Source: Streptomyces afghaniensis 772 (GTDB lineage Bacteria; Actinomycetota; Actinomycetes; Streptomycetales; Streptomycetaceae). Taken from it: a DNA stretch of 35,620 nucleotides. A model generated the notes under the pieces. It searched no databases, was not told where the DNA came from, and was given only the letters and a program-made list of their open reading frames with translations. Each line of letters begins with the position of its first letter. The stretch's first letter is position 1. The translations under genes were made by a program, and so were the position numbers. Positions 16,424 through 35,620 of the stretch are shown piece by piece. The stretch is from NCBI GenBank assembly GCA_000415505.1, contig KE354488.1, positions 1-35,620 of the forward strand. Reading direction: 5' to 3'.

Positions 16424-16467
16424 ACAACACCGGTGGAATTCACGCACCTCTTACCGAAAGCGGAACG

Positions 16468-18267: not shown

Positions 18268-18300
18268 CCACCGCCGCAAGCACGCCAGGAGGCAAGCACG

Positions 18301-19764: not shown

Positions 19765-19811
19765 GGGTGACGCCCCGTACGACGCCGGCGGACCGAGGAG
19801 GGGAGACGGAC

Positions 19812-20834
19812 ATGGACCCGACGCAGCGGCGGCGCCGGTCCGTGCCGGCCCTCGTCGGGCTGTCGGCCGCGCTCCTCGCGACGGCCCTGTGGGGCTTCAC
19901 CTTCCTGGGCCCCGCCGCCGTCGAGCCCGTCAACATCTACTACCTCGTCCTCGGCCGGTACGCGGTCTTCGGCCTGATGTCGGCCGCCGTACTGCTGGCG
20001 CGGCCCGGCAGGCTCCGCACCCTGGGGAAGCGTGACGTCCTCAAGGCGATGCACCTGGGCGTCGTGGGATACATCGGCTTCTACCTGCTGCTGTCGATGT
20101 CCGCGTCCGTCGGCGGCGGTGTCCTCGCCTCGGCCATGACCGGTCTGATCCCCGTCATGGTCTCGCTGATCTCCAACGCCGTCGAGAAGGTCTTCGCCTG
20201 GCGCAGCGGGCTGCTGCCCATCGCCGTCATCGCCGCCGGGCTGTTCCTGGTGAACGGCGGTACCGCTTCCCTGGGGACGGCGGGCGACGGGCAGGACCGG
20301 CTCGCGGGTGCGGCGCTCGGGTTCGCGGCGTGTGTGGCCTGGTCGTACTTCGTCATCGCCAACCGGATCATCCTGCGGCGTGCGGCCCGGGTTCCGGACA
20401 ACGCCACGTGGACGGCCTGCATCGGTATCGGCGCGTTCCTCGGCTCCCTCGTCCTGCTGCCGCTGGCCGAGTCCGCCGAGGGCACGTCCCCGTTCGCCGA
20501 CACCGGCACGCTGTGGTCGTTCCTCGCCTGGTGCGCGGCGCTGGCCGTGCTGGGCTCGTGGTGCGCCACGTGGTTCTGGAACATCGCGTCGAAGCGCCTC
20601 CCGGCGACGGTCATGGGCCCGATCATCGGGATGGAGGCGGTGTTCGGAGCCTTCTTCTACCTGATCTGGGAACAGCGCCTCCCCACCGCCCAGGAGCTCT
20701 GGGGCGGCCTGCTGGTCATCGGCGGCGTCTTCTTCAGCTTCCACGTCTTCGACCGCGCCAGACTCCCCCGGCCGGTCCCGGAGCGCTCTCCGCGCGAGAC
20801 CCCGACCGGCCTGGGCGGAGGCGAGGGGCGGTAG
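19812..20834 (+). CDS. EamA/DMT-family transporter
   Basis: 340 aa from ATG 19812 behind GAGGAGGGGAG. About ten hydrophobic helices in two EamA repeats: first repeat begins LVGLSAALLATALWGFTFLG, second begins about residue 165 (LGFAACVAWSYFVIANRI) and ends LWGGLLVIGGVFFSFHVF; the C-terminal tail is Pro/Arg-rich and soluble. Inner-membrane drug/metabolite transporter, most likely exporting the cluster product or an intermediate. Last gene of the first operon. A weak hairpin (GCCCGT/ACGGGC, 20868-20894) follows. Confidence 0.9.
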   Translation: MDPTQRRRRSVPALVGLSAALLATALWGFTFLGPAAVEPVNIYYLVLGRYAVFGLMSAAVLLARPGRLRTLGKRDVLKAMHLGVVGYIGFYLLLSMSASVGGGVLASAMTGLIPVMVSLISNAVEKVFAWRSGLLPIAVIAAGLFLVNGGTASLGTAGDGQDRLAGAALGFAACVAWSYFVIANRIILRRAARVPDNATWTACIGIGAFLGSLVLLPLAESAEGTSPFADTGTLWSFLAWCAALAVLGSWCATWFWNIASKRLPATVMGPIIGMEAVFGAFFYLIWEQRLPTAQELWGGLLVIGGVFFSFHVFDRARLPRPVPERSPRETPTGLGGGEGR

Positions 20835-21069
20835 CGCAGCGGAGGTTCGGAGCCATGAACGGCGAGCGCCCGTAAGCAGACCGGACTCACGGGCTTGGGA
20901 AGCCTTGGGTGTGGCGGGTGCGGAGTGTTTCGGCCGCGCTGGCCGACCGTCGCCTTCGGGCCAGACTCGTGGCCGACGGCTCAACGGCCTGGACCGCGGC
21001 CGGACCCGGTGTCAGACTCCGTCGCGATCACGGCAACCTGTCCTTCCCCGGAGTGAAGGGGGAACCGGC

Positions 21070-21675
21070 TTGGGCAACTCGACCGCGCTGCACGGTGTGT
21101 CCGAACACCCCGTCATCGGAGCCGCTGTCACCCGGCGCACCAGTCTGGTCCTGCCACCCGGCTTTTCCCTGGCGGAGTGGAAACGCGTCGGAAAACACCT
21201 CTTCCTGATAGCGGATTCCTCCTGCTGGTGGCACGGCGACTGGCTCGTGTACGGCCAGGAAAGATATCCCGGCAAGTACCGCCGGGCGATGGAGGAAACC
21301 GGTCTCGATTACAAGACCCTGCGCAACTACGCGTGGATCGCCAGACGTTTTCCGGCCTCCGAACGGAATCCCAGACTCAGCTTCCAGCACCACGCCGAAG
21401 TGGCCTCCCTGGCCCCTGAGGAACGCCGCAGATGGCTGGACCGAGCCGCCCAGGAGGGCTGGTCCCGCAACCGGCTCCGGCACGAACTGCGCAAGGAGCT
21501 TTCCGACTCGTCCGACGTTCGCGAACCACGTCAGGTGCGGCTCCAGTTGCGTACCACCACGGAGCAGGAGTCCGCCTGGACGAGGGCCGCCGAGCGCGAC
21601 GGCCTCGAACTGGCCGAATGGATCACCGCCAGCCTCGATCGGGCAGCCGGACTCGACGACGAGGCCGGGCCCTGA
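21070..21675 (+). CDS. LmbU-family cluster-situated transcriptional regulator
   Basis: 201 aa from TTG 21070, which has GAAGGGGGAA 5 to 8 bases upstream; GTG 21097 is the alternative. The sequence strongly recalls LmbU of the lincomycin cluster: SLVLPPGFSLAEWKRVG, LFLIADSSCWWHGDWLVYG, YRRAMEETGLDYKTLRNYA, RLSFQHHAEVASLAPEERRR and WSRNRLRHELR. LmbU-type proteins are DNA-binding regulators found almost only in antibiotic clusters. It sits between the two halves of the cluster and is its only visible regulator. The C-terminal part (QLRTTTEQESAWTRAAERDG) resembles a ribbon-helix-helix-like segment (inference). Confidence 0.85.
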   Translation: MGNSTALHGVSEHPVIGAAVTRRTSLVLPPGFSLAEWKRVGKHLFLIADSSCWWHGDWLVYGQERYPGKYRRAMEETGLDYKTLRNYAWIARRFPASERNPRLSFQHHAEVASLAPEERRRWLDRAAQEGWSRNRLRHELRKELSDSSDVREPRQVRLQLRTTTEQESAWTRAAERDGLELAEWITASLDRAAGLDDEAGP

Positions 21676-21995
21676 AGGTCCCCGCCCCCGCCGCCCGGGC
21701 CGACTACGGCAGCTTTCGGTCATCCTCGGGCGGCGGCAGGCACCGTCCGGCCCCCTCCCGGAGGCAAGGTCCCCTGGTCGGCAAGGACGGCGAATTCAAT
21801 AAGGCTTGCCTTACCTTCGAGAAAACCAGTCAGCAGTCTTAATGCGATCTCCTTGACGCGTCCGCAATTCCCCCGCCAGTCTTTGCCGAGCCGCGCCCCG
21901 ACCAGCCGCGCTGCTCTTGCGAAACCGAAGCCCTCCGCACGTCAGCGCGAACCACCTTCGGGTACTTCACCGTGAGCATGGCAATGGGGGAACTG
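21676..21995. other. 320-base intergenic region before the ferredoxin
   Basis: No gene seen. The left part is GC-rich and may fold (GGCCGGGC near 21662 with GCCCGGGCC near 21696). The right part is lower in GC and holds the iron-box-like site at 21800-21818. This is probably the promoter region of the ferredoxin/radical SAM operon. Confidence 0.55.
21800..21818 (+). promoter_or_regulatory. iron-box-like site (DmdR/IdeR/DtxR type)
   Basis: TAAGGCTTGCCTTACCTTC matches 13 of 19 positions of the DtxR/IdeR-family consensus (TTAGGTTAGCCTAACCTAA), including the core AGG and ACCT. It lies about 180 bases before the ferredoxin start. Binding of an iron-dependent repressor would link expression of the iron-sulphur genes to iron supply (inference). 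Confidence 0.5.
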
Positions 21996-22331
21996 TTGAC
22001 CTTCGTAATCGCCCAGCCCTGCGTCGACGTCAAGGACAAGGCCTGTCTGGACGTCTGTCCCGTCGACTGCATCTACGAGGGCTCGCGCACCCTGTACATC
22101 CACCCCGACGAATGCATCGACTGCTCGGCCTGCGAACCGGTCTGCCCGGTCGAGGCGATCCACCGCGACACCGAACTCCCCGAGGAGTGGCAGGTGTACG
22201 AGCGGGTGAACGCCGAGTTCTTCACCGCCACGACCGACCTGGGCTCACCGGGCGGCGCCACGGAGGTCGGCCCCGTCGCGGCCGACCACGAGCACATCAC
22301 CGCGCTGCCCCGGTCGGCAGCCCGCACCTGA
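21996..22331 (+). CDS. seven-iron (3Fe-4S/4Fe-4S) ferredoxin
   Basis: 111 aa if started at TTG 21996, which follows GGGGGAAC and gives MTFVIAQPCVDV, the usual N-terminus of actinobacterial FdxA-type ferredoxins. GTG 21972 or ATG 21978/21984 are upstream alternatives without ribosome sites. Cysteines are Cys9, Cys17, Cys21, Cys25 and Cys40, Cys43, Cys46, Cys50 (ACLDVCPVDCI; ECIDCSACEPVCP), the pattern for one 3Fe-4S and one 4Fe-4S cluster. It directly precedes three radical SAM genes, so the likely role is supplying electrons for SAM cleavage (inference). Confidence 0.92.
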   Translation: MTFVIAQPCVDVKDKACLDVCPVDCIYEGSRTLYIHPDECIDCSACEPVCPVEAIHRDTELPEEWQVYERVNAEFFTATTDLGSPGGATEVGPVAADHEHITALPRSAART

Positions 22332-22407
22332 CGCCCCGACGAAACGGTTTCGCTCCGCACCACCGCACGGCACAACTGCCCACCTCCCCCCGACGGAAGG
22401 ACAGTCC

Positions 22408-23844
22408 GTGACGCAGACGACCTGGAACCAGGAACCCCATCCAGCCCGGCTCGAGGAGCGGCTCGACGACGACGTCGTGCGATGTCACCTCAGTCCGCGC
22501 AACTGCCGCATACGCCCCGGACAGCACGGCTTCTGCATGGTGCGCGCCAACCGTGACGGACGCCTGGTCACCCTCAACTACGGGCGTTCGGTGCACGCCA
22601 CCGAGGAGACCATCGAGACCGAGGCGGTCTTCCACTACGCGCCCGGCGCCCGCATCCTCTCCATGGGCAACGTCGGCTGCATGCTCAACTGCGACTACTG
22701 CCACAACTGGAAGACGTCCCAGGCGCGTTACGTCGAGGACAAGGACGTCTACCACTACACGCCCGAGGAAGTCGTCGACATCGCCGTCCGGCACGGCATC
22801 AAGGTCATCTCCTGGACCTACAACGACCCGGTAGTGTGGCACGAGTTCGTCGTCGAGACCGCCGCCCTCGCCAAGGCCGCCGGCATCGTCAACCTCTACA
22901 AGTCCGCGTTCTTCATCAGCGGCGAGGCGATCGAGGAACTCATCCCCGTCATCGACATCTTCTCGGTGTCGATCAAGTCCCTCGACCCGAAGTACTACCG
23001 CAAGATCACCAAGGGCTGGCTGGAGCCGGTGCTGGAAGGCACCGAGCAGGTCTACCGGGCCGGAAAGCACGTCGAGGTCTCCACGCTGATGGTCACCGAC
23101 CTCAGCGACGACGAGAAGACGGCCCGCGAGATGGCCACCTTCGTCGGTGAGCGGCTGGACCCGTCGATCCCCACCCACTTCGTGCGGTTCCACCCCGACT
23201 ACAAGATGACCGACACCATCCGCACGCCCGTGGACCGCCTGGAACGCGCCCGCAAGGTCGCCATGGACATGGGCCTGAACCACGTCTACCTCGGCAACGT
23301 CTACGACACCGAGTCCACCAACACCTGGTGCAGCCAGTGCGGCCTGCTCCAGGTCACCCGGTACGGCCTCAACGCCGACCTGGTCGGGGTGGACGCCGAC
23401 GGCAACTGCGCATCCTGCGGCACCCGCGCCCCCCTGAAGCTGCTGCCGGACGCCCGGCGCCGCAGCAAGGTCCAGGAGCTGCCCGCCGGCGGCGACCTCG
23501 ACGTGGCGTCCTTCGACTGGCACGGCGACGTCCGCGCGCTCCACGTGCAGATGCGCAACGAGTCCGACGCGCCGGCCACCGCCTACACCCGCCGCTACGG
23601 CGATCCGGCCGCGGACGGCAGCTGGGAGATCGTCGAGCTCAAGCCGCAGGAGAGCTTCCGCTACATCGCGGCCAAGAGCACGCCCGACGAGCTCGGCGTC
23701 CAGGTGGCCATCCCGGACCGGTGCACCTCCAGCCTCCACCAGGTCTTCGACCGGGCCCACTTCCCGACCGTGGAGGTGGCCGCCGGGACCCTGAACCAGG
23801 ACGTGTCGCCGCTGCCCCTCTTCCAGCCCGGCACCCGCCGCTGA
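22408..23844 (+). CDS. radical SAM protein, AmrS (AmmeMemoRadiSam)-like
   Basis: 478 aa from GTG 22408 behind GGAAGGAC. Radical SAM cluster motif CMLNCDYC (Cys91, Cys95, Cys98). The N-terminus has the AmrS-type cysteine region CHLSPRNCRIRPGQHGFCMVR (in part: Cys26, Cys33, Cys43), though the usual second Cys (CxLCPH) is Ser here. After the barrel comes a zinc-ribbon-like WCSQCG...CASCG (about 305-340) and a ~120-residue C-terminal domain I do not recognise. The AMMECR1 and Memo partners of the three-gene AmmeMemoRadiSam system are absent. The reaction is unknown; it is probably recruited to biosynthesis. Confidence 0.85.
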   Translation: MTQTTWNQEPHPARLEERLDDDVVRCHLSPRNCRIRPGQHGFCMVRANRDGRLVTLNYGRSVHATEETIETEAVFHYAPGARILSMGNVGCMLNCDYCHNWKTSQARYVEDKDVYHYTPEEVVDIAVRHGIKVISWTYNDPVVWHEFVVETAALAKAAGIVNLYKSAFFISGEAIEELIPVIDIFSVSIKSLDPKYYRKITKGWLEPVLEGTEQVYRAGKHVEVSTLMVTDLSDDEKTAREMATFVGERLDPSIPTHFVRFHPDYKMTDTIRTPVDRLERARKVAMDMGLNHVYLGNVYDTESTNTWCSQCGLLQVTRYGLNADLVGVDADGNCASCGTRAPLKLLPDARRRSKVQELPAGGDLDVASFDWHGDVRALHVQMRNESDAPATAYTRRYGDPAADGSWEIVELKPQESFRYIAAKSTPDELGVQVAIPDRCTSSLHQVFDRAHFPTVEVAAGTLNQDVSPLPLFQPGTRR

Positions 23845-23885
23845 GCCCCGGTCCCGGCACCCGGGGAGACAAGGGGAAGAAACAC

Positions 23886-25391
23886 ATGAGGCACGGAACC
23901 GACTACCGTGTGCTGCCCTTCAGCGACGACACCTCCGCGGTGTTCCTCACCGACAACCACCGGCTGCTGCTGGCCCCGGCCGGCACCGCCGAGCGCCTGG
24001 AGTCCGGCGTGGACAGCCTGTTGCCCCCAGAGCGGCAGGCCTGGGAGCGCATGCGGCAGGCCGTGGGCGCCGACGAGGGCGTCAACCGCTCCCGGCTGCG
24101 GGAGAGTTCGCTCTCCGACGGGGCCGACTTCGCGGTCAACGTCAACCTCACCAACGTCTGCAACCTCGCCTGCACCTACTGCTTCGCGGAAGGCGGGGAC
24201 TACGGCCGGATCACCGAGGCCATGGGCGAGCACTCGATCGCCTGGATCTTCGACTTCATCGAGAGCAACGCCGTGCCCGGACAGCGCGTCCGCTTCGAGT
24301 TCTTCGGCGGCGAGCCGCTGGCGAACTTCGCCGTGATCCAGAAGATCTGCGAGCGCGCCCGGAGCGTCTCCCGGCGGGACGGCACCGAGTTCGTGCACCG
24401 CATCTCCACCAACCTCACGCTGATGCCGAAGGGCATCGAGGAGCTGTTCCGCGAGTACCGCTTCATCGTCTCGGTCTCCATCGACGGCGGTCGCGAGGTC
24501 CAGGACGCCAACCGGCCCTCCAAGAACGGCATGGGATCCTACGACCGGATCATGCGCAACCTCTGGCGGCTGCGGGAGGCGTGCGGCGACGACATCACGC
24601 TGGTGGCGCGGATGACGATCGCCACCGGCGAGCCCAGCCTCAAGGACAGCGTGCACGACCTGTGGCAGCTGGACCTGTTCGACTACTTCCAGATCTACCC
24701 GGGCGTGTACCCGGTGGAGAAGGACACGAAGGTCCCCATCGCCCTCACCCTCGGCGACCGCAAGCTCTCCGAGCCGCAGGGCATCCAGTACATCAACCAC
24801 TTCCTCCAGCCCGGCATCGTCGAGCAGTTCAAGGACTTCCTCCTCCACTACCCGTCCCTCTTCGCACCCGGCAACCGCTTCAAGGGCGTGCTGGAGTACG
24901 AGCGGACCGTGCAGATGGTCACCGAGGGAGCCACCGCCCTGGCCTTCTGCTCCGGCGGCCGGACGTACTACACGCACTCACCCGACGGCAGCATCAGCCC
25001 CTGCCACCGCCTCGTCGGCGACGAGAGCTTCGACGTCGGCACCGGCTCCGAGGGGATCACCCGGGAGCACCCCGAGTGGCGGCGCACCGTCGACGAGCAC
25101 CCCGTGTGCGGGGGGTGCTGGGCCCGCTACCTGTGCGGTGGCGGCTGCCGGCAGGAGAACCACGTGGCCTCGGGGGACGTCAACGTCCTCAACGACGAGT
25201 CGTGCCAGTACCAGCTGATGCTGGCCGAGGAGGTCATCAAGATGCTGGCCAGGTCCACGGCCGACTACCGGGCACGCTCCCGGGACCGGTACGACGACCT
25301 GTTCGTCTCCTGCGGCCGCCCCGTGGTCCCCAACGAGCGGCCCGCCCTGGAACAGCCCACCGGCTACGAGCCCTTCCGGGTGCTCTGCTGA
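23886..25391 (+). CDS. radical SAM/SPASM-domain protein
   Basis: 501 aa from ATG 23886 behind GGGGAAG. Radical SAM motif CNLACTYC (Cys92, Cys96, Cys99), then FEFFGGEPL (SAM-binding GGE), STNLTLM and VSVSIDGG. The C-terminal third is a SPASM/twitch-type region with many Cys: FCSGGRTYY, ISPCHRL, PVCGGCWARYLCGGGCRQENH and ESCQYQ, able to hold one or two auxiliary 4Fe-4S clusters. Most such proteins modify ribosomal peptides or carry out dehydrogenation and C-C/C-S linkage. No precursor peptide gene was found near it, so a small-molecule or carrier-bound substrate is possible. An ~80-residue N-terminal domain precedes the barrel. Confidence 0.9.
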   Translation: MRHGTDYRVLPFSDDTSAVFLTDNHRLLLAPAGTAERLESGVDSLLPPERQAWERMRQAVGADEGVNRSRLRESSLSDGADFAVNVNLTNVCNLACTYCFAEGGDYGRITEAMGEHSIAWIFDFIESNAVPGQRVRFEFFGGEPLANFAVIQKICERARSVSRRDGTEFVHRISTNLTLMPKGIEELFREYRFIVSVSIDGGREVQDANRPSKNGMGSYDRIMRNLWRLREACGDDITLVARMTIATGEPSLKDSVHDLWQLDLFDYFQIYPGVYPVEKDTKVPIALTLGDRKLSEPQGIQYINHFLQPGIVEQFKDFLLHYPSLFAPGNRFKGVLEYERTVQMVTEGATALAFCSGGRTYYTHSPDGSISPCHRLVGDESFDVGTGSEGITREHPEWRRTVDEHPVCGGCWARYLCGGGCRQENHVASGDVNVLNDESCQYQLMLAEEVIKMLARSTADYRARSRDRYDDLFVSCGRPVVPNERPALEQPTGYEPFRVLC

Positions 25392-25458
25392 CGGTCCCCG
25401 CACCGCCCGGTCGCCCCTCCGCCGCCGCACGGCGAGCCTGACAAGGAGCAGCAGCCAG

Positions 25459-26757
25459 ATGGCCGAGAAGATCGTTCGCCGCAACATCCACACCTACCCC
25501 TTCAAGTACCGTAAACCGGACTACGAGGAGTACTTCCGGCCCGAGAACGCCGTGCTCTACCTGCACGTGCCGTTCTGCATCACCAAGTGCGGGTTCTGCG
25601 ACTACACCGTCTACATCAACAAGAACGAGCAGCACTTCGCGCAGTACGTCGACGCCCTGGAGAAGGAGATCCGCGCCTTCGCCGCGAACCGGGTGTTCCC
25701 CGCCTTCCGCGTGGACGCCGTCTACTTCGGCGGCGGCACGCCCGGCATCCTCACCGGCGACCAGACGGCCCGGCTGCTCGACGTGTGCCGCGAGTCCTTC
25801 GAGTTCAACGAAGGGGCGGAGATCGCCCTGGAGTTCGACCCGTCGACGGTGGACGGGGCCAAGATCGCGCGCATGCGCGAGTCCGGCTTCAACCGGCTCA
25901 ACCTGGGCATCCAGGCGTTCGACGACCGCCTGCTGCAGATCTGCAACCGCTCGCACGACCTGGCCACCGCCGAGCGGGCCTACCGGACCATCGTCGACGG
26001 CGGTTTCACCCACACCAACATCGACCTGATCTTCCCGCTGCCCGACCAGTCCCTGGACGACTGGAAGCACAGCGTGGACCGGGCGATCGAGCTGGAACCC
26101 GCCTGCATCACCGCCTACGGCCTGGAGATCTGGCCCAAGACCGCGTTCCACTCCCTGATCAAGTCCGGGAAGATGGCGCTGCCGACGCCCGAGGACGAAG
26201 AGCGCATGTACGAGTACGCCATCGACGCGCTGGAGGCGGCGGGGTTCAAGCGCCGCAGCTCGACGGGCTACTACCACCCCGACCGCTGCGAGGACTACTC
26301 GCGGTTCCTGGAGTACTACTGGCGCACCTGGCCGATGATCGGCTTCGGCGTGTCGTCCAAGAGCGTGATCCACGACCGGCTGTTCGTGAACGTCAAGCCG
26401 CTCAAGCAGTACTACGAGCTGGTGGAGGAAGGAAAGGTCCCGCTCGATTTCGCCACGTATCTCACCAAGGAACAGGAGATGCGCCGGGTCATGATCCGTG
26501 GCCTGAAAATGTGCGAGATCTACCGTCACGACTTCGAGAACCGCTTCGGAGTCACGATGGAGGACGTCTTCGGCAGCGAACTGGAACAGCTTCTCGACAA
26601 GGGCTGGCTGGAAAAGCAGGGGGACGACGTGTATTCGTTGACCCGGGCCGGCCAACTGCTGTCCACGAATGTCTACGAGATGTTCTACGCGCCGGAGGAC
26701 CTGAGTCCCGCGGAACCCGGTGAGGTACGCTTCGGCATATCCGAACTCGTCGAATGA
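25459..26757 (+). CDS. HemN/HemW-like radical SAM protein
   Basis: 432 aa from ATG 25459 behind AAGGAG. HemN-type radical SAM motif HVPFCITKCGFCDY (Cys40, Cys44, Cys47), GGGTPGIL, NLGIQAFDDRLL and THTNIDLIFPLPDQS, followed by a HemN C-terminal domain (about 310-415). It is not true coproporphyrinogen oxidase by context. HemN-like proteins in biosynthetic clusters are often class C methyltransferases or cyclopropane-forming enzymes that use two SAM molecules. It sits third in a row with the AmrS-like and SPASM proteins, 67 bases after the latter. The reaction is not predictable. Confidence 0.88.
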   Translation: MAEKIVRRNIHTYPFKYRKPDYEEYFRPENAVLYLHVPFCITKCGFCDYTVYINKNEQHFAQYVDALEKEIRAFAANRVFPAFRVDAVYFGGGTPGILTGDQTARLLDVCRESFEFNEGAEIALEFDPSTVDGAKIARMRESGFNRLNLGIQAFDDRLLQICNRSHDLATAERAYRTIVDGGFTHTNIDLIFPLPDQSLDDWKHSVDRAIELEPACITAYGLEIWPKTAFHSLIKSGKMALPTPEDEERMYEYAIDALEAAGFKRRSSTGYYHPDRCEDYSRFLEYYWRTWPMIGFGVSSKSVIHDRLFVNVKPLKQYYELVEEGKVPLDFATYLTKEQEMRRVMIRGLKMCEIYRHDFENRFGVTMEDVFGSELEQLLDKGWLEKQGDDVYSLTRAGQLLSTNVYEMFYAPEDLSPAEPGEVRFGISELVE

Positions 26758-26855
26758 CCTGACCGACGGGTGTGCCGCAAGGAGGCGGGGGAATTGGCGC
26801 AAACCCGTTTATCGGGGACCGGGGTGAACGGCGTGGTGCAGCAGGGGAGCAGACG

Positions 26856-27485
26856 GTGAGCGTGATCCCGGCCTGGAGTGCGGGTCTCGGACTCGGTTTC
26901 CTCGTCGCCCTGCCGCTCGGTCCCATCGGACTGCTGTGTGTGCGCAGTGTTCTGCGCAACGGCTTTCTCTGCGGATTCGCCATCGGCCTCGGCGCGGCGG
27001 CCATCGACGTGCTGTACGCCGGCCTCGGCCTCGCGGGTGTCGGCAAGCTGCTGGACATCTCCGTGCTGCGGACCGCGCTCGGGCTCGCCGGTGCCGTGGT
27101 CATGGCGTATCTGGGTTTCCGCTCGGTGCGTTCGGCCTTCCGGGCGAGGAGCGCGGTCGTCGACACCGAGGGCGAGACGGTGCAGCCGTGGGAGGCCTTC
27201 CGTACGGCTCTCACGGCGACGGCGGCCAACCCGGCGACGATCGGCTACTGGGCGGCGGCCTTCGCCGCCGCCACGGCGGCGAACGTCACGGACACGCTCG
27301 CGGACTCGCTCGCCATGCTGGTCGGCGTCGGCTCCGGCACGCTGCTGTGGTTCACCACCCTCAGCATCGGGGCCGTGCTGTTCCGCCGCTGGTTCACCGC
27401 CCGCATGCTCCAGGGAGTGGACCTCCTGGCAGGCGTGGGCGTCATCTTCTTCGGCGGCGTCCTCGCGTACCAGGCCATCGGCTGA
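26856..27485 (+). CDS. LysE/ArgO-type amino-acid exporter
   Basis: 209 aa from GTG 26856, 7 bases after AGGGGAG; the longer frame from 26772 lacks a ribosome site. Six hydrophobic helices with the LysE signature near the N-terminus (LGFLVALPLGPIGLLCVRSVL), then AANPATIGYWAAAFAAAT and a final FFGGVLAYQAIG. Inner-membrane export of amino acids or amino-acid-like compounds; a hydrazino or N-hydroxy amino acid would suit. A strong hairpin follows the gene. Confidence 0.85.
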   Translation: MSVIPAWSAGLGLGFLVALPLGPIGLLCVRSVLRNGFLCGFAIGLGAAAIDVLYAGLGLAGVGKLLDISVLRTALGLAGAVVMAYLGFRSVRSAFRARSAVVDTEGETVQPWEAFRTALTATAANPATIGYWAAAFAAATAANVTDTLADSLAMLVGVGSGTLLWFTTLSIGAVLFRRWFTARMLQGVDLLAGVGVIFFGGVLAYQAIG

Positions 27486-28921: not shown

Positions 28922-29920
28922 ATGGACACCTTCGAATTCGTGCCGTCGCCCGCTCAGCTCAGCTGGACGTTCGGCGGAGTGAAAGCGATTTCCCGATTAC
29001 GTCCGGGAACGACGCTGAGACTGTGGACCGAGGACGCCTTCAGCGGTCTGCTCCACAAGAATTCGCACCTGCCCGGCGAGAGAATCCGGCACGGCAGATT
29101 CAATCCGCAGACCGGCCCTTTTCACGTCGAAGGGGCGGAACCCGGCGACACCCTGGTCCTGCACATCGCCGGACTGACCCCGGCCCGTGACTGGGGCGTC
29201 TCCACCCTCGTCGCCGGATTCGGCGGGCTCACCTCCACCGATCGCACCGCCACTTTGCAGGACCCGCTTCCGGAACGGACCTGGATCTACCAGGTCGACC
29301 CGAAGGCCGAAACGATTCGCTTCGAGGCGGCGGCCGGTGAGTTCGCGGTCGACCTGCCCCTGGCCCCGATGCTCGGCACGGTGGGCGTGGCCCCGCAGGG
29401 CGCGGAGGTGCGCTCCTCGCTGGCGGCCGGCGCCCACGGCGGCAACCTCGACACCCCCGAGATGCGGGCCGGTGCCACCTGCTACCTCGGGGTCAACGTC
29501 GACGGCGCGCTGTTCTCCGTCGGCGACGGTCACTACCGGCAGGGCGAGGGCGAGTCGTGCGGCACCGCCGTCGAGGGCGCCATGAACGTGACCCTCGTCG
29601 TCGACCTGATCAAGGGCGCCGCGCCCGCCTGGCCGCGCATCGAGAACGACGAGTACCTCATCACCCTCGGGAGCGCCCGGCCCCTGGAGGACGCCTGGCG
29701 CGTCTCGCAGGTGCAGATGGTGAACTGGCTGAGCGAACTCCACGGCCTCGACCGGCTCGACGCCTACCAGTTGCTCTCCCAGATCTCCCGCACCCCGCTG
29801 GCGAACGTCGTCGACACCGACTACACCGTCGCCACCAAGGTGCCCAAGGCCCTGCTCCCGGACAGACCCGGGTACGGCGGAGCCCACCGCCGGATGCGGG
29901 AGATCGCCGCCCGCCTCTGA
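28922..29920 (+). CDS. acetamidase/formamidase-family protein
   Basis: 332 aa from ATG 28922 behind GAGGGGAGACGTAC. Features of the FmdA/AmdA family: FHVEGAEPGDTLVLHI, MLGTVGVAPQGAE, GAHGGNLDTPEMRAGATCYL and GVNVDGALFSVGDGHYRQGEGESCGTAVE in two parts, with conserved His and Asp residues of the metal site. These hydrolyse formamide, acetamide or similar short amides to the acid plus ammonia. Here it could remove an N-formyl/acyl group from an amine or hydrazine (inference). A TTA codon at 28997-28999 implies bldA dependence. Confidence 0.88.
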   Translation: MDTFEFVPSPAQLSWTFGGVKAISRLRPGTTLRLWTEDAFSGLLHKNSHLPGERIRHGRFNPQTGPFHVEGAEPGDTLVLHIAGLTPARDWGVSTLVAGFGGLTSTDRTATLQDPLPERTWIYQVDPKAETIRFEAAAGEFAVDLPLAPMLGTVGVAPQGAEVRSSLAAGAHGGNLDTPEMRAGATCYLGVNVDGALFSVGDGHYRQGEGESCGTAVEGAMNVTLVVDLIKGAAPAWPRIENDEYLITLGSARPLEDAWRVSQVQMVNWLSELHGLDRLDAYQLLSQISRTPLANVVDTDYTVATKVPKALLPDRPGYGGAHRRMREIAARL

Positions 29921-30134: not shown

Positions 30135-30497
30135 ATGGAAATGCGCAGCCTCGACCGCGGCACGCTGGGGCCGGAGAACGGCTTCTCGCAGCCACTGCTC
30201 CCCTGGTCCGCCCTCAACGCCCCTTTCAAAGGCGCCTGGTGCGTGGTCCACCCGGGGTCCTCGACCACCCGGCACGCCCATCCCGACTACGAGATCTTCA
30301 TCGCCCTGTCCGGCGAGGCGGTCCTCGAATCCAGGGGCGAGCGTGTGCCCTTCCGCGAGGGGGACATCGTCCACTTCCCGCCGGACACGGATCACCAGGT
30401 GCACAACGAGGGGGCGGAGGACTTCCAGATGTACACGGCCTGGTGGACCCCCGAGACCGCCGAGGGATTCCTCGCCCGGCACCGCGGGGAGGCCTGA
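30135..30497 (+). CDS. cupin protein, cupin half of a split hydrazine synthetase
   Basis: 120 aa from ATG 30135 (weak GGTGG ribosome site; TTG 30123 and GTG 30126 are in frame). Single cupin barrel: motif 1 HAHPDYEIFIALSG with metal ligands His47, His49, Glu53, and motif 2 GDIVHFPPDTDHQVHN with His87. Its stop is 3 bases before the MetRS-like gene. In the characterised hydrazine synthetase (Spb40) and its triacsin homologue a cupin domain and a MetRS-like domain are one protein; the cupin rearranges the O-aminoacyl-hydroxylamine ester so that an N-N bond forms. Here the same two parts are adjacent genes. Confidence 0.85.
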   Translation: MEMRSLDRGTLGPENGFSQPLLPWSALNAPFKGAWCVVHPGSSTTRHAHPDYEIFIALSGEAVLESRGERVPFREGDIVHFPPDTDHQVHNEGAEDFQMYTAWWTPETAEGFLARHRGEA

Positions 30498-30500
30498 GCG

Positions 30501-32107
30501 ATGGCAGGGACCTCACCGGGAGGTTCCCGGCCCGCCGTCATCATCGACACCTCACCCACCCCCAACGGCGACCTCCACATCGGGCACCTGGCCGGCCCGT
30601 TCATGTCGGCCGACATCCACGCCCGGTACCTGCGCGCCCGCGGCCGTCCCGTCGTCTTCTCCACCGGGACGGACGACAGCCAGACGTACGTCATGGCCGG
30701 CGCACGCCGCAGCGGCACCACCCCCGAGGAACTGGCCGCCGTCAACCACGCCGCGATCGGACGGACCCTCCGGGCCGCCGGCATCTCCGTGGACGGCTAC
30801 GCCCCCTACGACGACGCCTACCGGGCGAACGCCCTGCGCTTCGTCACCGACCTGTACGACGCGGGCAAACTGGAGTTGCGTACCGTCTCCTTCCCCTGCG
30901 ACGCGCGCACCGGTGAGGTCCTGCTCGAGGGACTGGTCGGCGGCTACTGCCCGGTCTGCGTCACCGAGAGCCGCGGCGGCGTCTGCGAGATGTGCGGCCA
31001 CCCCAACAACTTCGACGAACTCATCGACCCGTGGTCCACCCTGGACCCGGCCGCACCCGTCACCACACGCGAGCACCAGGTGCTGGTGCTGCCCATGGAG
31101 CAGTACCGCAAACGGCTCGCGTCCTTCTACCAGACGCGCGAGTCGGGTCTGCGGCCGCGCACCCTGAAGTTCCTCCGCGAGGCACTGGCCCGGCCGCTGC
31201 CCGACTTCCCGGTCACCTACCCCGTCGCCCACGGGCTGCCCTCGCCCTTCCCGGGCACCGAGGGGCAGCGGCTCAACGCGTGGGTGGAGGGCATCCCGGC
31301 GGCGATGTACTGCACGGACTTCGCCGCCCGCCGGGTGGCCGACCCGCGCGTCGCCGGCAAGGAGCTCTGGCGCCCCGAACACGACCCGGAGATCATCTAC
31401 TTCATCGGCTCCGACATCGTCTACTTCTGGGGCCTCACCCACCTGGCCCTGCTGATGGCCCACGACGGCCGGTACGCCCTGCCCGACCACATCGTCTCCA
31501 ACGAGTTCTACGAACTGGAGGACGACAAGTTCTCCACCACGCGGGGCCACGTCGTCTACATCGACGAAGTGCTCGGCCTCGTCAGCCGCGACGCGTTCCG
31601 GTTCCATCTGGCGCTCACCGGACCGGAGCACCAGCGGACCAACTTCAGCCGGGACGCACTGGTGAAGGTCACGCGGGACCGGCTCGTCGGGCCCTGGAAC
31701 CGGATCGCCGGCGCCCTCGCCCCGGCCGCCGCCGACACCCCCGGCACGCTGCCCGTGTCCGGCCCGGCCCGGCGGCGCGCCCGTGCCGTACTGGACCGGT
31801 TCGTCGACGCCTACGAGATCCAGGGCTACAGCCCGTCCACGGCCGCCGACCTCGTGGTGGCACAGCTGGACCGGCTGGGCAGGGCGACGGCCCGGCTCGC
31901 CGAACTGCCCGCCCCGGCACGGGCCGAGGCCCTCGGCGACCTCTTCCTGGAACTGCGCGTCCTGATCGCCGGCGCCTCGCCGATCCTCATCGACCTCGCC
32001 GAGGAGGCCCGCCGGGCCGGCGGCTGGGACGGCACGCTGGACGAGGCCCTGGCGGACGCCGGCGAGGTCACCGCCTTCCCGGTGCCGTTCCTCGGAGGCG
32101 CCGGTGA
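30501..32107 (+). CDS. MetRS-like protein, ester-forming half of the hydrazine synthetase (3' frameshift suspected)
   Basis: About 535 aa of class I methionyl-tRNA-synthetase-like sequence: HIGH motif at residues 26-29 (NGDLHIGHLAG), a zinc knuckle CPVC...CEMC, IYFIGSDIVYFWGLTHLALL, and DDKFSTTRGH in place of KMSKS. In the hydrazine pathway such proteins use ATP to load an amino acid (glycine in s56-p1) onto the hydroxyl of N6-hydroxylysine instead of tRNA. Oddity: the frame does not stop near 32107. It stays open to 33326, out of frame with the next gene. A one-base shift just before 32105 would use the TGA overlapping the next GTG, the normal coupling. I give that as the likely true end. 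Confidence 0.88.
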
Positions 32108-33372
32108 GCGCCGGGGGAGTGAGCACCGTGCGGGGGACGAACGGGGGCCCGGCCGGAGGGGATCGGCACACGGTGGTGGTGGGCGGCGGCGTGGTCGGAC
32201 TGCTCACCGCGGTGGAATGCGTCCGGGCGGGGCAGCACATCACCCTCCTCGAACGGGGCCCCCTGCCCCACCCCGGCTCCTCCTCCCACGACCGGCACCG
32301 GGTGATGCGGGCCCTGCACCCGCACGATCCCGGCGCCACCCGCGCGGCCGTCACCGCGCACCGGCTGTGGCGGGAGCTGGAGTCACTGCTGGACGGCCGC
32401 TTCCTGTACCGCACGGGCGTACTGACCACGCTGCCGGCGGGGGAGACGGCCTCCGCGGCGGCCGGGCTGACCCGGGCCGGACTCCGGGCACGGGTGCTCG
32501 CACCGCGGCAACTTCCCGAAACGTACCGCCACTTGGCCTTCCCGGCCGGACTGGGCGCCGTCCTGGAGGAGGACACCGGAGTGCTCCTCGCCGACCGGGT
32601 GCTCGGGGCGGCGGTCCGCTGGCTCGGCGCCCACCCCAGGGCCCGGCTGCTGCCGCACACCACGGTCACGGCGGTCGACGCGGCGGCCCGGGCGGTGACG
32701 GTCGAGGACGGCCGGACCCTGCGCGGCGACCGGGTGCTGCTGGCGGCCGGGGCCTGGTCCCGGGCCCTGCTGCCGCCGGTCCTCGCCGGGCGGCTGACCG
32801 TGCACCGGCAGACCATGGTGTACTGCGACCCGCCGCCCCGGGAGCGGGAGCGATGGCGCGGCACCCCCGCCGTGCCCGTCTCCGGCATCCCCTGGGGAGC
32901 CTGGCTGGTCCCGCCGGTCGCCGGCACCCCGCTGAAACTGTCCGCCGACGCGCTGTGCCGCGTCGTGGCCGGGCCGGACGTCCCCGAGCCGGACCAGGCA
33001 CCCGCCGGGGAACCGGCGAGCCGGTTCACCGAACTGGTCCCGGGCCTGCGGCCGGAGTGGGTCGTCGGCACCCGCGACTGCCACTACGTCACCGACGGCA
33101 CATCGGGCGGCACCCTGCTCGCCGACCTCGGCGCGGGAGCCGTCCTCGCCCACTGCGCCTGCGGCGGCGGCGCGTTCAAGTTCGCCCCGCTCACCGCCCG
33201 CACGCTGGCGAGCCGGTTCGGCGGCGTGCCTCCCGCCCCCACCGGACTGCACCCACTGGACCATCCGGTCGCCACCGGCCCGGGCGACCCCGCCCCGACC
33301 CCCACGACACAGGAGACCACGCGTGATCGACTACAACGGCAGAACGTTCCGCAACACCGAGGCGGGCCCTGA
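32104..33372 (+). CDS. FAD-dependent amine oxidase, sarcosine/D-amino-acid-oxidase-like
   Basis: 422 aa from GTG 32104. FAD-binding VVVGGGVVGLLTAVECV near residue 24, ending in HITLLERG; LLAAGAWSRALLP; and a C-terminal GGGAFKFAPL segment. Cys326 in TRDCHYVTDGT is placed like the covalent-FAD cysteine of monomeric sarcosine oxidase (C-x-Y-T). In s56-p1 and triacsin clusters an FAD oxidase of this sort cleaves the lysine-glycine hydrazine adduct to release hydrazinoacetate; its place right after the MetRS-like gene supports that role. The last 50 bases overlap the next gene. Confidence 0.88.
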   Translation: MSAGGVSTVRGTNGGPAGGDRHTVVVGGGVVGLLTAVECVRAGQHITLLERGPLPHPGSSSHDRHRVMRALHPHDPGATRAAVTAHRLWRELESLLDGRFLYRTGVLTTLPAGETASAAAGLTRAGLRARVLAPRQLPETYRHLAFPAGLGAVLEEDTGVLLADRVLGAAVRWLGAHPRARLLPHTTVTAVDAAARAVTVEDGRTLRGDRVLLAAGAWSRALLPPVLAGRLTVHRQTMVYCDPPPRERERWRGTPAVPVSGIPWGAWLVPPVAGTPLKLSADALCRVVAGPDVPEPDQAPAGEPASRFTELVPGLRPEWVVGTRDCHYVTDGTSGGTLLADLGAGAVLAHCACGGGAFKFAPLTARTLASRFGGVPPAPTGLHPLDHPVATGPGDPAPTPTTQETTRDRLQRQNVPQHRGGP

Positions 33373-33703
33373 CGGCACCGCACCCGTGGCCACGTACCAC
33401 CAGGACGGCGACCTCGTGTGGGCGGAGGCCGCCGGGGGCGAGGTCCGCCGCTGCGCCCTGGCCGGGACGTGCGACGCCGACGGCACCATCACCATGGGCT
33501 ACACCCTGGTCCTGCGCAGCGGTGAGATCGCCGTCGGACGGTGCGTCAGCACGCCCGAACGGCTCGACGACGGACGCATCGTGCTGCGCGAGGAATGGGA
33601 GCGCTACCAGCCGACCCCCGCGAAGGGCACCTCCGCCATCGAGGAGATCCCGTCCCACGCCGCTGCCACCAAGCCGACAGAATCCGCACCCGAGGGGGGA
33701 TGA
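33323..33703 (+). CDS. small beta-barrel-like protein, unknown function
   Basis: 126 aa from GTG 33323, behind CAGGAGA. Pattern of alternating strands: MIDYNGRTFRNTEAG, VATYHQDGDLVWAEAAGGEV, TITMGYTLVLRSGEIAVGRC, RIVLREEWERY. Similar proteins are found in databases under the doubtful name n-acetylglutamate synthase, but there is no GNAT fold here; a lipocalin- or MORN-like small barrel fits better (inference). The C-terminal 25 residues look disordered. It lies inside the hydrazine cassette, overlapping the FAD enzyme, one base from the oxygenase, so a binding, lyase or isomerase role in the pathway is conceivable. Confidence 0.78.
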   Translation: MIDYNGRTFRNTEAGPDGTAPVATYHQDGDLVWAEAAGGEVRRCALAGTCDADGTITMGYTLVLRSGEIAVGRCVSTPERLDDGRIVLREEWERYQPTPAKGTSAIEEIPSHAAATKPTESAPEGG

Positions 33704-33704
33704 G

Positions 33705-34688
33705 ATGTCCACCGCCACACTCAGCAGGGTCGACGACCACGTACTCGCCTTCGACGACACCGTGACCAAAGCCGTGCGGGAGACGTCGGAACAACTCATG
33801 GCCGTCGAGGGGCCGGTGGACGGCGCCGCCTGGACCGCGGCGGCCGGCGACGCCTGGCACCATCTGCCGGCGGAACTCCGGCAGGCCGTGAGCCGGTTCC
33901 GCCGCCACTCCGGCGATCAGGGCGTCCTGTTACTGCGCGGACTGCCCGTGGGCGAGGACCTCCTGCCCGACACGCCCGCCACGCTCGACTCCGTCCAGTC
34001 GGAGCCGTCCGTCTCGGCCGCCGTCCTGATGATGATCGCCGGCGGCCTCGGCGACCCGGCCGCCTTCCGGCCGGAGAAGAACGGCGCCCTCGTGCAGAAC
34101 GTGGTGCCGGTGCCGGGCAAGGAGGAGGTGCAGGGCAATCCGGGCTCCGTGGAACTGACCTTCCACACCGAGAACGCCTTCCACGCCCACCGCCCCGACT
34201 TCGTCCTGCTCATGTGCCTGCGGTCCGACCACGAAGGAGTCGCGGGACTGCGCACCTCCTGCATCCGGCAGATCCTGCCGATGCTGAGCTGGGTGGACCG
34301 GGAGGCGCTCTACCGCGCCGACTACGTCACGGCGCCGCCGCCTTCCTTCGGTGGGCGGAACAACCACGTCACCGAGCACGCCGTACTCGTCGGCGACCTC
34401 TTCGACCCCGACCTGAGGGTCGACTTCGCCGCCACCACCACCCGCAGCGGACAGGCCGAACTCGCCATGGCCGAACTGGAGTCGGCCTGCCACGCGCAGG
34501 CCCTGGAGTTCCGGCTGCGGCCCGGGGACCTGGCCCTCGTGGACAACCGGGTCACACTGCACGGACGTACCGGCTACCGGCCGCGCTACGACGGGCGTGA
34601 CCGCTGGTTGCAGCGCACCTTCGTCCTGACCGACCTGCGGCGCTCCCGCCGGCACCGCCCCAACGACGGCAACGTACTGGTCCGGTGA
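33705..34688 (+). CDS. Fe(II)/2-oxoglutarate oxygenase, clavaminate-synthase/TauD-like
   Basis: 327 aa from ATG 33705, one base after the previous stop, with GAGGGGGG upstream. Iron ligands His154 and Glu156 in FHTENAFHAHRPDF and His286 in VTLHGRTGYRPRYDGRDRW; the Arg in RDRWLQRTF binds 2-oxoglutarate. The HxE (not HxD) pattern is that of the clavaminate synthase/AsnO/VioC group, which hydroxylates free or carrier-bound amino acids at unactivated carbons. Next to a lysine-type N-hydroxylase, a lysine-derived substrate is plausible but unproven. Contains a TTA codon at 33930-33932 (bldA). Confidence 0.9.
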   Translation: MSTATLSRVDDHVLAFDDTVTKAVRETSEQLMAVEGPVDGAAWTAAAGDAWHHLPAELRQAVSRFRRHSGDQGVLLLRGLPVGEDLLPDTPATLDSVQSEPSVSAAVLMMIAGGLGDPAAFRPEKNGALVQNVVPVPGKEEVQGNPGSVELTFHTENAFHAHRPDFVLLMCLRSDHEGVAGLRTSCIRQILPMLSWVDREALYRADYVTAPPPSFGGRNNHVTEHAVLVGDLFDPDLRVDFAATTTRSGQAELAMAELESACHAQALEFRLRPGDLALVDNRVTLHGRTGYRPRYDGRDRWLQRTFVLTDLRRSRRHRPNDGNVLVR

Positions 34689-34756
34689 CCGGCCCGAGCG
34701 CGGCCCGGACCGCGCGCACAGTCCGTCAGGCGTCCAAGACACGGGAGATCGGCACA

Positions 34757-35620
34757 GTGGACACCCTTCGACGCGGACCGGACGGCCCGCACTTCGGCTG
34801 TGTGGGCATCGGTGTCGGCCCGGCCAACCTGAGCCTCGCCTCCCTGCTGCACGGCCGTCCCGAGATGACCAGCCTGTTCGTCGAGCGCCGGGAGACCTTC
34901 GGATGGCACGACGACCAGCAGATCGCCGGGGCCACGCTCCAGGTGTCGCTCTTCAAGGACCTGGTGACGCTGGCCGATCCGACGAACAAGTTCTCGTTCC
35001 TGTCGTACCTGCACGACCAGGGCATGATCTACCACTTCGTCAACGCCCAGTTCGACGCCATGCCGCGCCGGGAGTTCCGCAACTACCTGGAGTGGGCGAG
35101 CCGCAAGAACGAGAACGTCACCTTCGGTGAGGAGGTCCTGTCCGTCGACTTCGACGGGGTCTTCGTGATCCGGACCGGCAAGCGGACCCTGACCGCGGAC
35201 CACGTGTCCCTCGGCATCGGCAGCCGGCCCTGGGTGCCCGAGCACGCCCGCGGCCTGCTGGGCGAGTCGCAGTTCCACGTCAGCGACTTCGTGCGGCGGT
35301 CCGGCGGCCTCGGCGGGCGGCGGGTCGGCGTGGTGGGCGGAGGCCAGTCCGGCGCGGAGGCCTTCCTCGACCTGATCTCCCGCCCGGAGGGGGAGCGCCC
35401 GGCCCATGTGGCGTGGATATCCCGGCGCGACAACTTCTTCCCCATCGACGACTCGCCGTTCACCAACGACTACTTCACGCCCTCCTTCTCCGACCACTTC
35501 TTCTCGCTCGACCGCGCCCAGCGCGAGGCGTTCAACGACCGGCAGCTCCTGGCCAGCGACGGTGTCTCGCCCGCCACCCTCAAGGAGATCTACCAGCGCT
35601 GCTACACCCGCCACTTCGTG
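34757..35620 (+). CDS. lysine/ornithine N-monooxygenase (SidA/IucD/PvdA family), truncated by right edge
   Basis: 288 codons present from GTG 34757, preceded by GGGAGATC; no stop before the window ends, so ~130-150 residues are missing. Flavin-dependent N-hydroxylating monooxygenase: FAD loop GIGVGPANLSLASLL, substrate region LVTLADPTNKFSFLSYL, NADPH loop VGVVGGGQSGAEAFLDL, and DDSPFTNDYFTPSF. It hydroxylates the side-chain amine of lysine or ornithine. In this context (MetRS-like, cupin and FAD oxidase upstream) it should supply the N6-hydroxylysine for N-N bond formation rather than a siderophore hydroxamate. No siderophore synthetase is visible in the window. Confidence 0.92.
   Translation, partial: MDTLRRGPDGPHFGCVGIGVGPANLSLASLLHGRPEMTSLFVERRETFGWHDDQQIAGATLQVSLFKDLVTLADPTNKFSFLSYLHDQGMIYHFVNAQFDAMPRREFRNYLEWASRKNENVTFGEEVLSVDFDGVFVIRTGKRTLTADHVSLGIGSRPWVPEHARGLLGESQFHVSDFVRRSGGLGGRRVGVVGGGQSGAEAFLDLISRPEGERPAHVAWISRRDNFFPIDDSPFTNDYFTPSFSDHFFSLDRAQREAFNDRQLLASDGVSPATLKEIYQRCYTRHFV

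What the first reader, a model, noticed from the sequence alone, without database searches (positions are those of the whole stretch)
30135..35620. Hydrazine (N-N bond) forming cassette with the cupin and MetRS parts as separate genes
Seen: cupin (His47/His49/Glu53/His87), MetRS-like protein with HIGH motif, sarcosine-oxidase-like FAD enzyme and lysine-type N-monooxygenase in one run. Known: in s56-p1 (Spb38/Spb40) and triacsin (Tri26-28) pathways these activities make N6-hydroxylysine, join it to glycine and release hydrazinoacetate, with cupin and MetRS fused in one protein. Inference: this window encodes a split hydrazine synthetase. The split form would allow each half-reaction to be studied alone.
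Basis: partly seen in the sequence, partly recalled or inferred. Interest (0 to 1): 0.9.

Follow-up and report, generated by a model that had tools for sequence, protein, structure and literature searches.

The report
Hybrid split hydrazine-making gene cluster
A bacterial gene cluster, probably from Streptomyces, carries the known two-protein machinery that joins two nitrogen atoms, but with an unusual second oxidase and extra tailoring genes that may let it release free hydrazine or build an unknown hydrazine compound.

Summary
In detail: a Zn-type cupin (H47/H49/E53/H87), a MetRS-like protein with HIGH, a sarcosine-oxidase-like FAD enzyme (DAO2) and a lysine-type N-monooxygenase (NMO) lie in one run. 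[quoted passage not shown] The split form is not new: standalone pairs are published (Zhao 2021; albofungin Afn8/Afn9), and 28 of 37 related loci here are split (sample biased).

What seems new lies around it. Nine genes (amidase, cupin, MetRS, DAO2, avidin-fold protein, AsnO-like oxygenase, NMO, second FAD oxidase DAO3, exporter) keep their order in 4 of 4 genomes from two families. The block mixes two lineages: cupin to AsnO match split-synthetase clusters; NMO and DAO3 match fused-synthetase, azaserine-like clusters. The oxidases form two supported clades; of the loci examined only this block carries both. Published family members cut either the lysine-side or the alpha-carbon-side C-N bond, so two oxidases could release free hydrazine. 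That step and the product are inferred. Three radical-SAM genes upstream belong to a separate block.

The parts
28922..29920 (+). FmdA/AmdA-family amidase, first gene of the nine-gene block
   Evidence: PF03069 6.3e-26; best solved match 5ubu acetamidase/formamidase 2e-62; in 4 of 4 genomes of the block, 0 of 31 other synthetase loci within the stretch held
30135..30497 (+). standalone cupin, N-N bond-forming half of the synthetase
   Evidence: ligand set H47/H49/E53/H87; Cupin_2 1.2e-17; matches RHS1 structure 5uqp at 1.1e-8, and 4rd7, 4mv2 more closely
30501..32105 (+). MetRS-like half of the synthetase (residues 1-535; the frame stays open to 33324)
   Evidence: best solved match PyrN C-terminal domain 9l8v; AF2 pLDDT 89.3; frame
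32119..33372 (+). DAO2, sarcosine-oxidase-like FAD oxidase of the split-synthetase lineage (ORF opens at 32104)
   Evidence: PF01266 4.9e-28; clade with split-lineage oxidases, 95/99; start from L009 alignment
33323..33703 (+). 126-aa avidin-fold protein found beside many split synthetases
33705..34688 (+). AsnO-like 2-oxoglutarate oxygenase, predicted L-asparagine (or close analogue) 3-hydroxylase
   Evidence: 2og5 asparagine oxygenase 355.6 bits, next match 138.2; TauD 5.5e-17
34685..35620 (+). NMO, flavin N-monooxygenase of the azaserine-like lineage (continues on C383, L005)
   Evidence: PF13434 5.1e-84; 61-62% identical to NMOs of L098/L099, 26-33% to NMOs of split-synthetase clusters
15021..21675 (+). 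accessory genes C26 hydrolase, GNAT, FAD oxidase DAO1, PLP decarboxylase, EamA exporter, LmbU regulator; shared with L009 only among the three relatives
   Evidence: families; in L009 these six lie directly before FmdA; an LmbU relative also lies beside the radical-SAM block in G124
21972..27485 (+). probably NOT part of the hydrazine block: ferredoxin, three radical-SAM genes, LysE exporter
   Evidence: found without hydrazine-block genes in the stretches held of G124 and G231, absent between LmbU and FmdA in L009

Best explanation
A hydrazine-forming operon with a split synthetase. The NMO makes an N6-hydroxylysine-type hydroxylamine. The MetRS-like protein, using ATP, activates a second amino acid (probably small) and esterifies it to the hydroxylamine. 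The cupin rearranges the ester into an N-N bond. One or both FAD oxidases then cut the dipeptide-like hydrazine. DAO3, ortholog of the oxidase beside the NMO in azaserine-like clusters, most likely cuts the lysine C6-N bond. DAO2, from the other lineage, acts on the other side or on the released hydrazine. The AsnO-like oxygenase supplies or tailors an asparagine-type unit, the amidase handles an amide, and the TauE-family protein exports. Shown here: gene content, order, homology, hybrid origin. Inferred: every reaction and the product.
For: PyrN domain is the nearest structure of the MetRS-like protein by sequence and fold. The cupin has the ligand set found across the aligned cupins. The NMO keeps the Lys and Asn (KDLVT, TND) that 6xbb, 7us3 and 5o8p lack and MbtG and KtzI keep, so an amino acid substrate is likely (the residues' role, and that the first three act on diamines, are recalled, except putrescine for 7us3). 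NMO/DAO3 relatives lie in an azaserine-like cluster (L099), and the products of nngKLM of the related N-nitroglycine cluster gave hydrazinoacetic acid in vitro (PMC13274452 abstract). Nine genes in order in 4 of 4 genomes.
Against: No enzyme was assayed. The NMO lacks the third substrate-contact position (ASD in place of TNY), though its azaserine-like relatives lack it too. The amino acid partner cannot be read from the pocket: PyrN (Glu) has Arg, azaserine-like proteins His, this clade Trp at that position. Genuine MetRS follow PyrN closely in the fold search (5urb 3.9e-34 against 6.0e-36), and E. coli MetG scores the window protein (98 bits) above either piece of the C353 MetRS (74.7, 69.4). 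In this genome DAO3 is in two frames and the MetRS-like frame has lost its stop. The C353 MetRS is in two frames as well, which points to assembly error but does not prove it.
Confidence: 0.78

Rival explanations
1. Two oxidases, one product: DAO3 makes the hydrazino acid (e.g. hydrazinoacetic acid), and DAO2 oxidises it on to a hydrazone or diazo/azo product rather than cutting the second C-N bond.
For: Azaserine-type paths go through oxidation of a hydrazine to a hydrazone (PMC13061610 passages; PMC13274452 section 15). DAO2 and DAO3 are distinct clades.
Against: In split-lineage loci DAO2 is the FAD oxidase found near the synthetase and no DAO3 was found (14 of 19 loci with DAO2, 0 of 19 with DAO3, within the stretch held), so there it probably does the cleavage itself.
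Confidence: 0.3
2. Intramolecular route: the synthetase uses asparagine or 3-hydroxyasparagine, and the freed hydrazine closes on the side-chain amide, helped by the amidase, to a pyrazolidinone.
For: AsnO-like oxygenase and amidase in 4 of 4 genomes of the block; no ligase, NRPS or PKS family among the nine genes.
Against: The MetRS-like pocket has Trp310 where PyrN has Arg, suggesting a small side chain; L048 and L051 have AsnO but not this amidase in the stretch held.
Confidence: 0.12
3. An ordinary azaserine/s56-p1-type hydrazinoacetate cluster whose other genes are incidental.
For: Same NMO and DAO3 families as an azaserine-like cluster.
Against: The nine-gene order, with amidase, DAO2, avidin-like protein and AsnO, is kept in Streptomyces and Actinokineospora, and left flanks differ; no NRPS, ACP or GNAT among the nine.
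Confidence: 0.15
4. MetRS-like protein is a housekeeping or resistance MetRS beside an unrelated cupin.
For: Class I MetRS fold; NCBIfam methionine-tRNA ligase models match.
Against: Its best ligase model scores 196.5 bits against a cut-off of 587, whereas the pieces on C353 score 444.8 and 183.6 with another ligase model; PyrN is closer than MetRS structures.
Confidence: 0.02

Closest known systems
PyrN (pyrazomycin) and standalone RHS1 with its MetRS-like partner (Rhodococcus jostii), Zhao et al. 2021, PMC8664883 (passages and sections 10 and 12 read)
   Same: MetRS-like plus cupin; metal-site residues at the same positions; RHS1 is split as here
   Different: Those use glutamate; the pocket Arg of PyrN is Trp here; RHS1 has Asp where this cupin has the first His
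Azaserine / N-nitroglycine / s56-p1 / triacsin NMO-FAD oxidase-fused synthetase cassettes (PMC11705231 passages; PMC13274452 abstract and section 15; S. lavendulae pSA3239 as the annotated example, L099)
   Same: NMO and DAO3 are orthologous to and adjacent like those of L098-L104
   Different: There the synthetase is fused (3 of 3 checked) and no DAO2 was found (0 of 8 loci); here the synthetase is split and of the other lineage
Albofungin abf/afn genes (cupin, tRNA synthetase, FAD oxidoreductase, lysine monooxygenase; PMC9469721 passages, PMC11705231 passages)
   Same: Separate cupin and MetRS-like genes; free hydrazine reported as proposed by its authors
   Different: Hydrazine is moved by an asparagine-synthetase-like transferase there; no such family among the nine genes; sequences not compared here
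AsnO, L-asparagine oxygenase (2og5)
   Same: 355.6 bits over 310 residues, next match 138.2
   Different: AsnO serves a lipopeptide synthetase (recalled); here it lies in a hydrazine operon without an NRPS

Membership tests
Cupin/MetRS hydrazine synthetase | MetRS-like part nearer to PyrN-type domains than to tRNA-charging MetRS | tested here: met
   187.4 against 138.2 bits; Foldseek rank 1
Cupin/MetRS hydrazine synthetase | Cupin with the family's metal-site positions filled | tested here: met
   H47, H49, E53, H87; RHS1 has Asp at the first
Cupin/MetRS hydrazine synthetase | Loss of anticodon recognition residues | tested here: met
   N391/R395/W461 of E. coli MetG not kept; alignment at about 25% identity, so weak
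Cupin/MetRS hydrazine synthetase | Nearby N-hydroxylase | tested here: met
   NMO from 34685
Cupin/MetRS hydrazine synthetase | ATP-dependent N-N bond formation | not testable with these tools
   needs assay
s56-p1/triacsin/azaserine cassette (NMO, FAD oxidase, fused synthetase) | cupin and MetRS in one protein | tested here: not met
   different ORFs in window, L008, L009, L010
s56-p1/triacsin/azaserine cassette (NMO, FAD oxidase, fused synthetase) | orthologous NMO followed by orthologous FAD oxidase | tested here: met
   NMO and DAO3; the link to Spb39/Tri27 themselves is by gene order and azaserine-like context, their sequences were not held
Housekeeping MetRS | passes curated methionine-tRNA ligase cut-off | tested here: not met
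   196.5 bits against 587; 158.3 against 336.35
Avidin | avidin barrel fold | tested here: met
Avidin | biotin binding | not tested
   a shared fold shows no function

The most novel reading that the evidence does not exclude
The operon is a free-hydrazine factory. Two FAD oxidases of opposite regiochemistry, one from each hydrazine-synthetase lineage, cut both C-N bonds of the lysine-amino acid hydrazine and release N2H4. The avidin-fold protein holds a reactive intermediate. The amidase then moves the acyl group of AsnO-made 3-hydroxyasparagine onto hydrazine, giving a 3-hydroxyaspartate beta-hydrazide antimetabolite.
Probability: 0.15. Interest if true: 0.8.

Novelty: new variant of a known kind. 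Interest (0 to 1): 0.5.

Why it matters
Free hydrazine has been proposed for albofungin, but the review passages I read give no complete enzymatic route from a cupin/MetRS synthetase to it (a different, nitrous-acid-based route to hydrazine units is known for fosfazinomycin and kinamycin, PMC6133997, abstract start seen in a listing). Published oxidases of this family cut either the C-epsilon side (Spb39) or the C-alpha side (Apy10) of such hydrazines (PMC11705231). An operon that keeps one oxidase of each of two clades makes the two-cut idea directly testable with four or five purified proteins. The avidin-fold partner, found beside 13 of 19 split synthetases here, is an unnamed component.

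Tried and rejected
Split architecture as the novelty: rejected. Radical-SAM genes as part of the pathway: rejected, since the block occurs alone. NMO as a diamine or histamine hydroxylase, suggested by the NCBIfam match TIGR04439 (207.5 bits for the window part, cut-off 700) and by 6xbb/7us3 as nearest structures: judged unlikely, since Lys and Asn are kept where those have Ser/Ala and Leu. Reading the amino acid partner from the pocket: undecided. The amidase as a rare marker: relatives at 53-59% occur in 95 of 391 other genus genomes, so only its place in the block is informative. DAO1 as a third synthetase oxidase: its place on the tree is on a long branch and unsure. Search for papers on Plu4264 gave two that merely mention it (listing only). 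Searches for this gene set or product in print found none in the held open library; most subscription papers are not held.

Caveats on counts. The 37 loci were found with a split query, so the share of split forms is biased. L101-L105 were fetched by NMO similarity, so there only the presence of DAO3 and absence of DAO2 is informative; L105 is a weak member (MetRS 25%, DAO3 41%). Absence of a gene means absence within the 4-25 kb held. The scan uses six exact peptide patterns and finds close relatives only. The L010 NMO row is missing. Within the split-lineage oxidases BLAST scores go down to 26.9 bits because of L050, whose place on the tree is unsure; the window's DAO3 entered the tree as its first piece only. 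Flanks are not all unlike: the genes right of TauE in the window genome recur in S. natalensis L010 (72-81%) but not in L008, and L009 ends there. The avidin-like genome search used a model 13 of whose 16 rows come from the same genomes, so 13 of its 17 strongest matches are its own rows. These mends did not change my odds.
Full report
The genes. Cupin (30135-30497), MetRS-like (from 30501), a FAD oxidase I call DAO2 (probable start 32119, to 33372) and NMO (34685 to the window end) lie on one strand with short gaps or overlaps. Between them are two genes that it did not mention: a 126-aa protein (33323-33703) and a 2-oxoglutarate oxygenase (33705-34688). The window is the whole contig C783. 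Contig C383 of the same genome begins with its last 240 bases and carries the rest of the NMO, a second FAD oxidase DAO3, read there in two frames (36083-36718 and 36700-37131 in joined numbering), and a TauE-family exporter.

Is it a hydrazine synthetase? Yes, as far as sequence can tell. The MetRS-like protein matches the solved PyrN MetRS-like domain 9l8v (named as such) at 187.4 bits, and 9vq4, whose aligned sequence is the same, at 187.3; the best other entry is a MetRS at 138.2. Foldseek with the predicted model (pLDDT 89.3) again ranks PyrN first (E 6.0e-36, TM 0.86), with genuine MetRS close behind (3.9e-34). The protein is far below the curated cut-offs of methionine-tRNA ligase models and does not keep the E. 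coli methionine-pocket or anticodon residues (a weak alignment). Another MetRS is encoded on C353, in two pieces that match a methionine-tRNA ligase model at 444.8 and 183.6 bits over consecutive parts of it. E. coli MetG itself scores the window protein (98 bits) above either piece (74.7, 69.4). The cupin's H47, H49, E53 and H87 align with the family. Zhao et al. found Asp63, His65, Glu69 and His103 at the zinc of RHS1 (PMC8664883 section 10).

The split is known. Zhao et al. state that these enzymes sometimes exist as two standalone proteins, and assayed a standalone cupin. A review reports albofungin Afn8/Afn9 and lists several pairs. In 37 loci examined with HMMs, 28 have cupin and MetRS in different ORFs, 4 are fused, and in 5 no cupin was found (biased by a split query). 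Split cassettes also sit on plasmids of Deinococcus and Pantoea.

A conserved nine-gene block. The one scan of genome contigs found three loci with MetRS at 71-85% identity: Actinokineospora enzanensis (L008), Streptomyces sp. HD (L009) and S. natalensis (L010). All three have FmdA-cupin-MetRS-DAO2-small-AsnO-NMO-DAO3-TauE in this order. Left of FmdA, no window gene was detected in L008 or L010, and their neighbours there are of different families. Right of TauE, L010 shares two genes with the window genome at 72-81%; L008 does not, and L009 ends there. L009 has in addition C26-GNAT-DAO1-PLP decarboxylase-EamA-LmbU directly before FmdA, as in the window but without the radical-SAM genes. Those radical-SAM genes occur without block genes in G124 (96-98% identical, in the same neighbourhood of genes that I named by eye as purine catabolism, with an LmbU relative) and in G231. 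They are therefore probably a separate block. In 295 genus genomes the next nearest MetRS-like protein is only 57-58% identical.

Two lineages in one operon. In 19 split-type loci (L048-L066), 14 carry DAO2 and 0 carry DAO3. In 8 loci of the other type (L098-L105), 8 carry the window-type NMO (they were chosen by it) and DAO3, and 0 carry DAO2; four further loci (L067-L070) carry neither oxidase. L098, L099 and L100 have a weak cupin match within the same 665-769-aa protein. L099, on the S. lavendulae plasmid pSA3239, lists among others KASIII, an iron-containing redox enzyme, acyl-CoA dehydrogenase, P450, NRPS, AMP-binding protein and GNAT. This is much of the inventory described for azaserine and N-nitroglycine clusters (PMC13274452 section 15). 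The window NMO is 61-62% identical to those of L098/L099 but 26-33% to the NMOs of split-type loci. A tree of 24 FAD oxidases puts the window-clade DAO3 with the azaserine-like ones (100/99) and the window-clade DAO2 with the split-type ones (95/99); between-group BLAST scores reach 42.4 bits at most, within the azaserine-like group they are 148 or more, and within the split-type group 26.9 or more, L050 being an outlier. The four genomes of the block carry both. The block is thus a hybrid: synthetase, DAO2, avidin-like protein and AsnO from one lineage, NMO and DAO3 from the other.

What two oxidases could do. The review says Spb39 cuts the C-epsilon-N bond to give hydrazinoacetate, and Apy10 of the same family cuts C-alpha-N instead. 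If DAO3 is Spb39-like (order and azaserine context; not tested against the sequence itself) and DAO2 has the other regiochemistry (inference), both cuts free hydrazine. The albofungin authors are reported to propose free hydrazine too. This is the most interesting reading, and unproven.

Tailoring genes. The oxygenase matches AsnO (2og5) at 355.6 bits against 138.2 for the next match, so L-asparagine or a close analogue is the likely substrate. Related oxygenases at 55-57% lie in L048 and L051. The amidase belongs to FmdA/AmdA. No ligase, NRPS or PKS family was found among the nine genes, so acyl transfer by the amidase to a hydrazine is a possible joining step (inference).

Amino acid partner. 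At the position of E. coli MetRS H301, PyrN (Glu) has Arg, the azaserine-like proteins (glycine, by the literature) His, and this clade and most of the split lineage Trp. Trp favours a small side chain, but this is not a test.

Frames. DAO3, the end of the MetRS-like gene and the C353 MetRS, which should be essential, all show frame breaks in this assembly, whereas L008, L009 and L010 have DAO3 in one frame. Assembly error is the likelier cause, not shown.

Verdict. The hybrid two-oxidase block with AsnO, amidase and avidin-fold partner was not found in the library searched. It is a new variant of a known kind.

Noticed in passing
window 21972-27485: Ferredoxin, AmmeMemoRadiSam-like, SPASM and HemN/ChuW-like radical-SAM genes and LysE form a separate block, 96-98% identical in G124 without the hydrazine genes and 80-93% (radical-SAM genes 87-93%) in G231; function unknown.
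   Followed up: partly
window 33323-33703: Avidin-fold small protein found beside many split hydrazine synthetases, without a family model.
   Followed up: yes
window 30501-33324: MetRS-like frame lacks a stop before DAO2 and stays open for 941 codons; one base differs from L009 near 32110.
   Followed up: partly
L005 703-1751: DAO3 of the window genome is in two frames, whereas L008, L009 and L010 have it in one.
   Followed up: partly
L106 771-2209 (G000 C353): The genome's other MetRS is also in two frames, which hints at assembly errors.
   Followed up: partly
L010 3029-7312: DAO oxidase, 2-oxoadipate dioxygenase and aldehyde dehydrogenase lie just upstream of the block in S. natalensis; they could dispose of aminoadipate semialdehyde from lysine-side cleavage.
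   Followed up: no
L005 2680-4560 and L010 17580-19370: Two genes on the opposite strand right of TauE (an FMN-dependent dehydrogenase in L010, and a small protein) are shared by the window genome and S. natalensis at 72-81%.
   Followed up: no
window 30135-30497: Solved cupins 4rd7 and 4mv2/4q29 (plu4264) match this cupin much better (3.8e-35, 5.4e-29) than the characterised RHS1 (1.1e-8), so they may be standalone N-N forming cupins.
   Followed up: no
window 28071-28757: 228-aa protein without Pfam or NCBIfam match; a 69% relative follows the radical-SAM block in G231.
   Followed up: no
G000 C641:22012-23037: A third MetRS-like stretch in the same genome, 24% identical to E. coli MetG.
   Followed up: no
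L064, L065: Two N-monooxygenases flank a MetRS-like synthetase with DAO2 but no cupin was found with the HMM in the stretch held.
   Followed up: no
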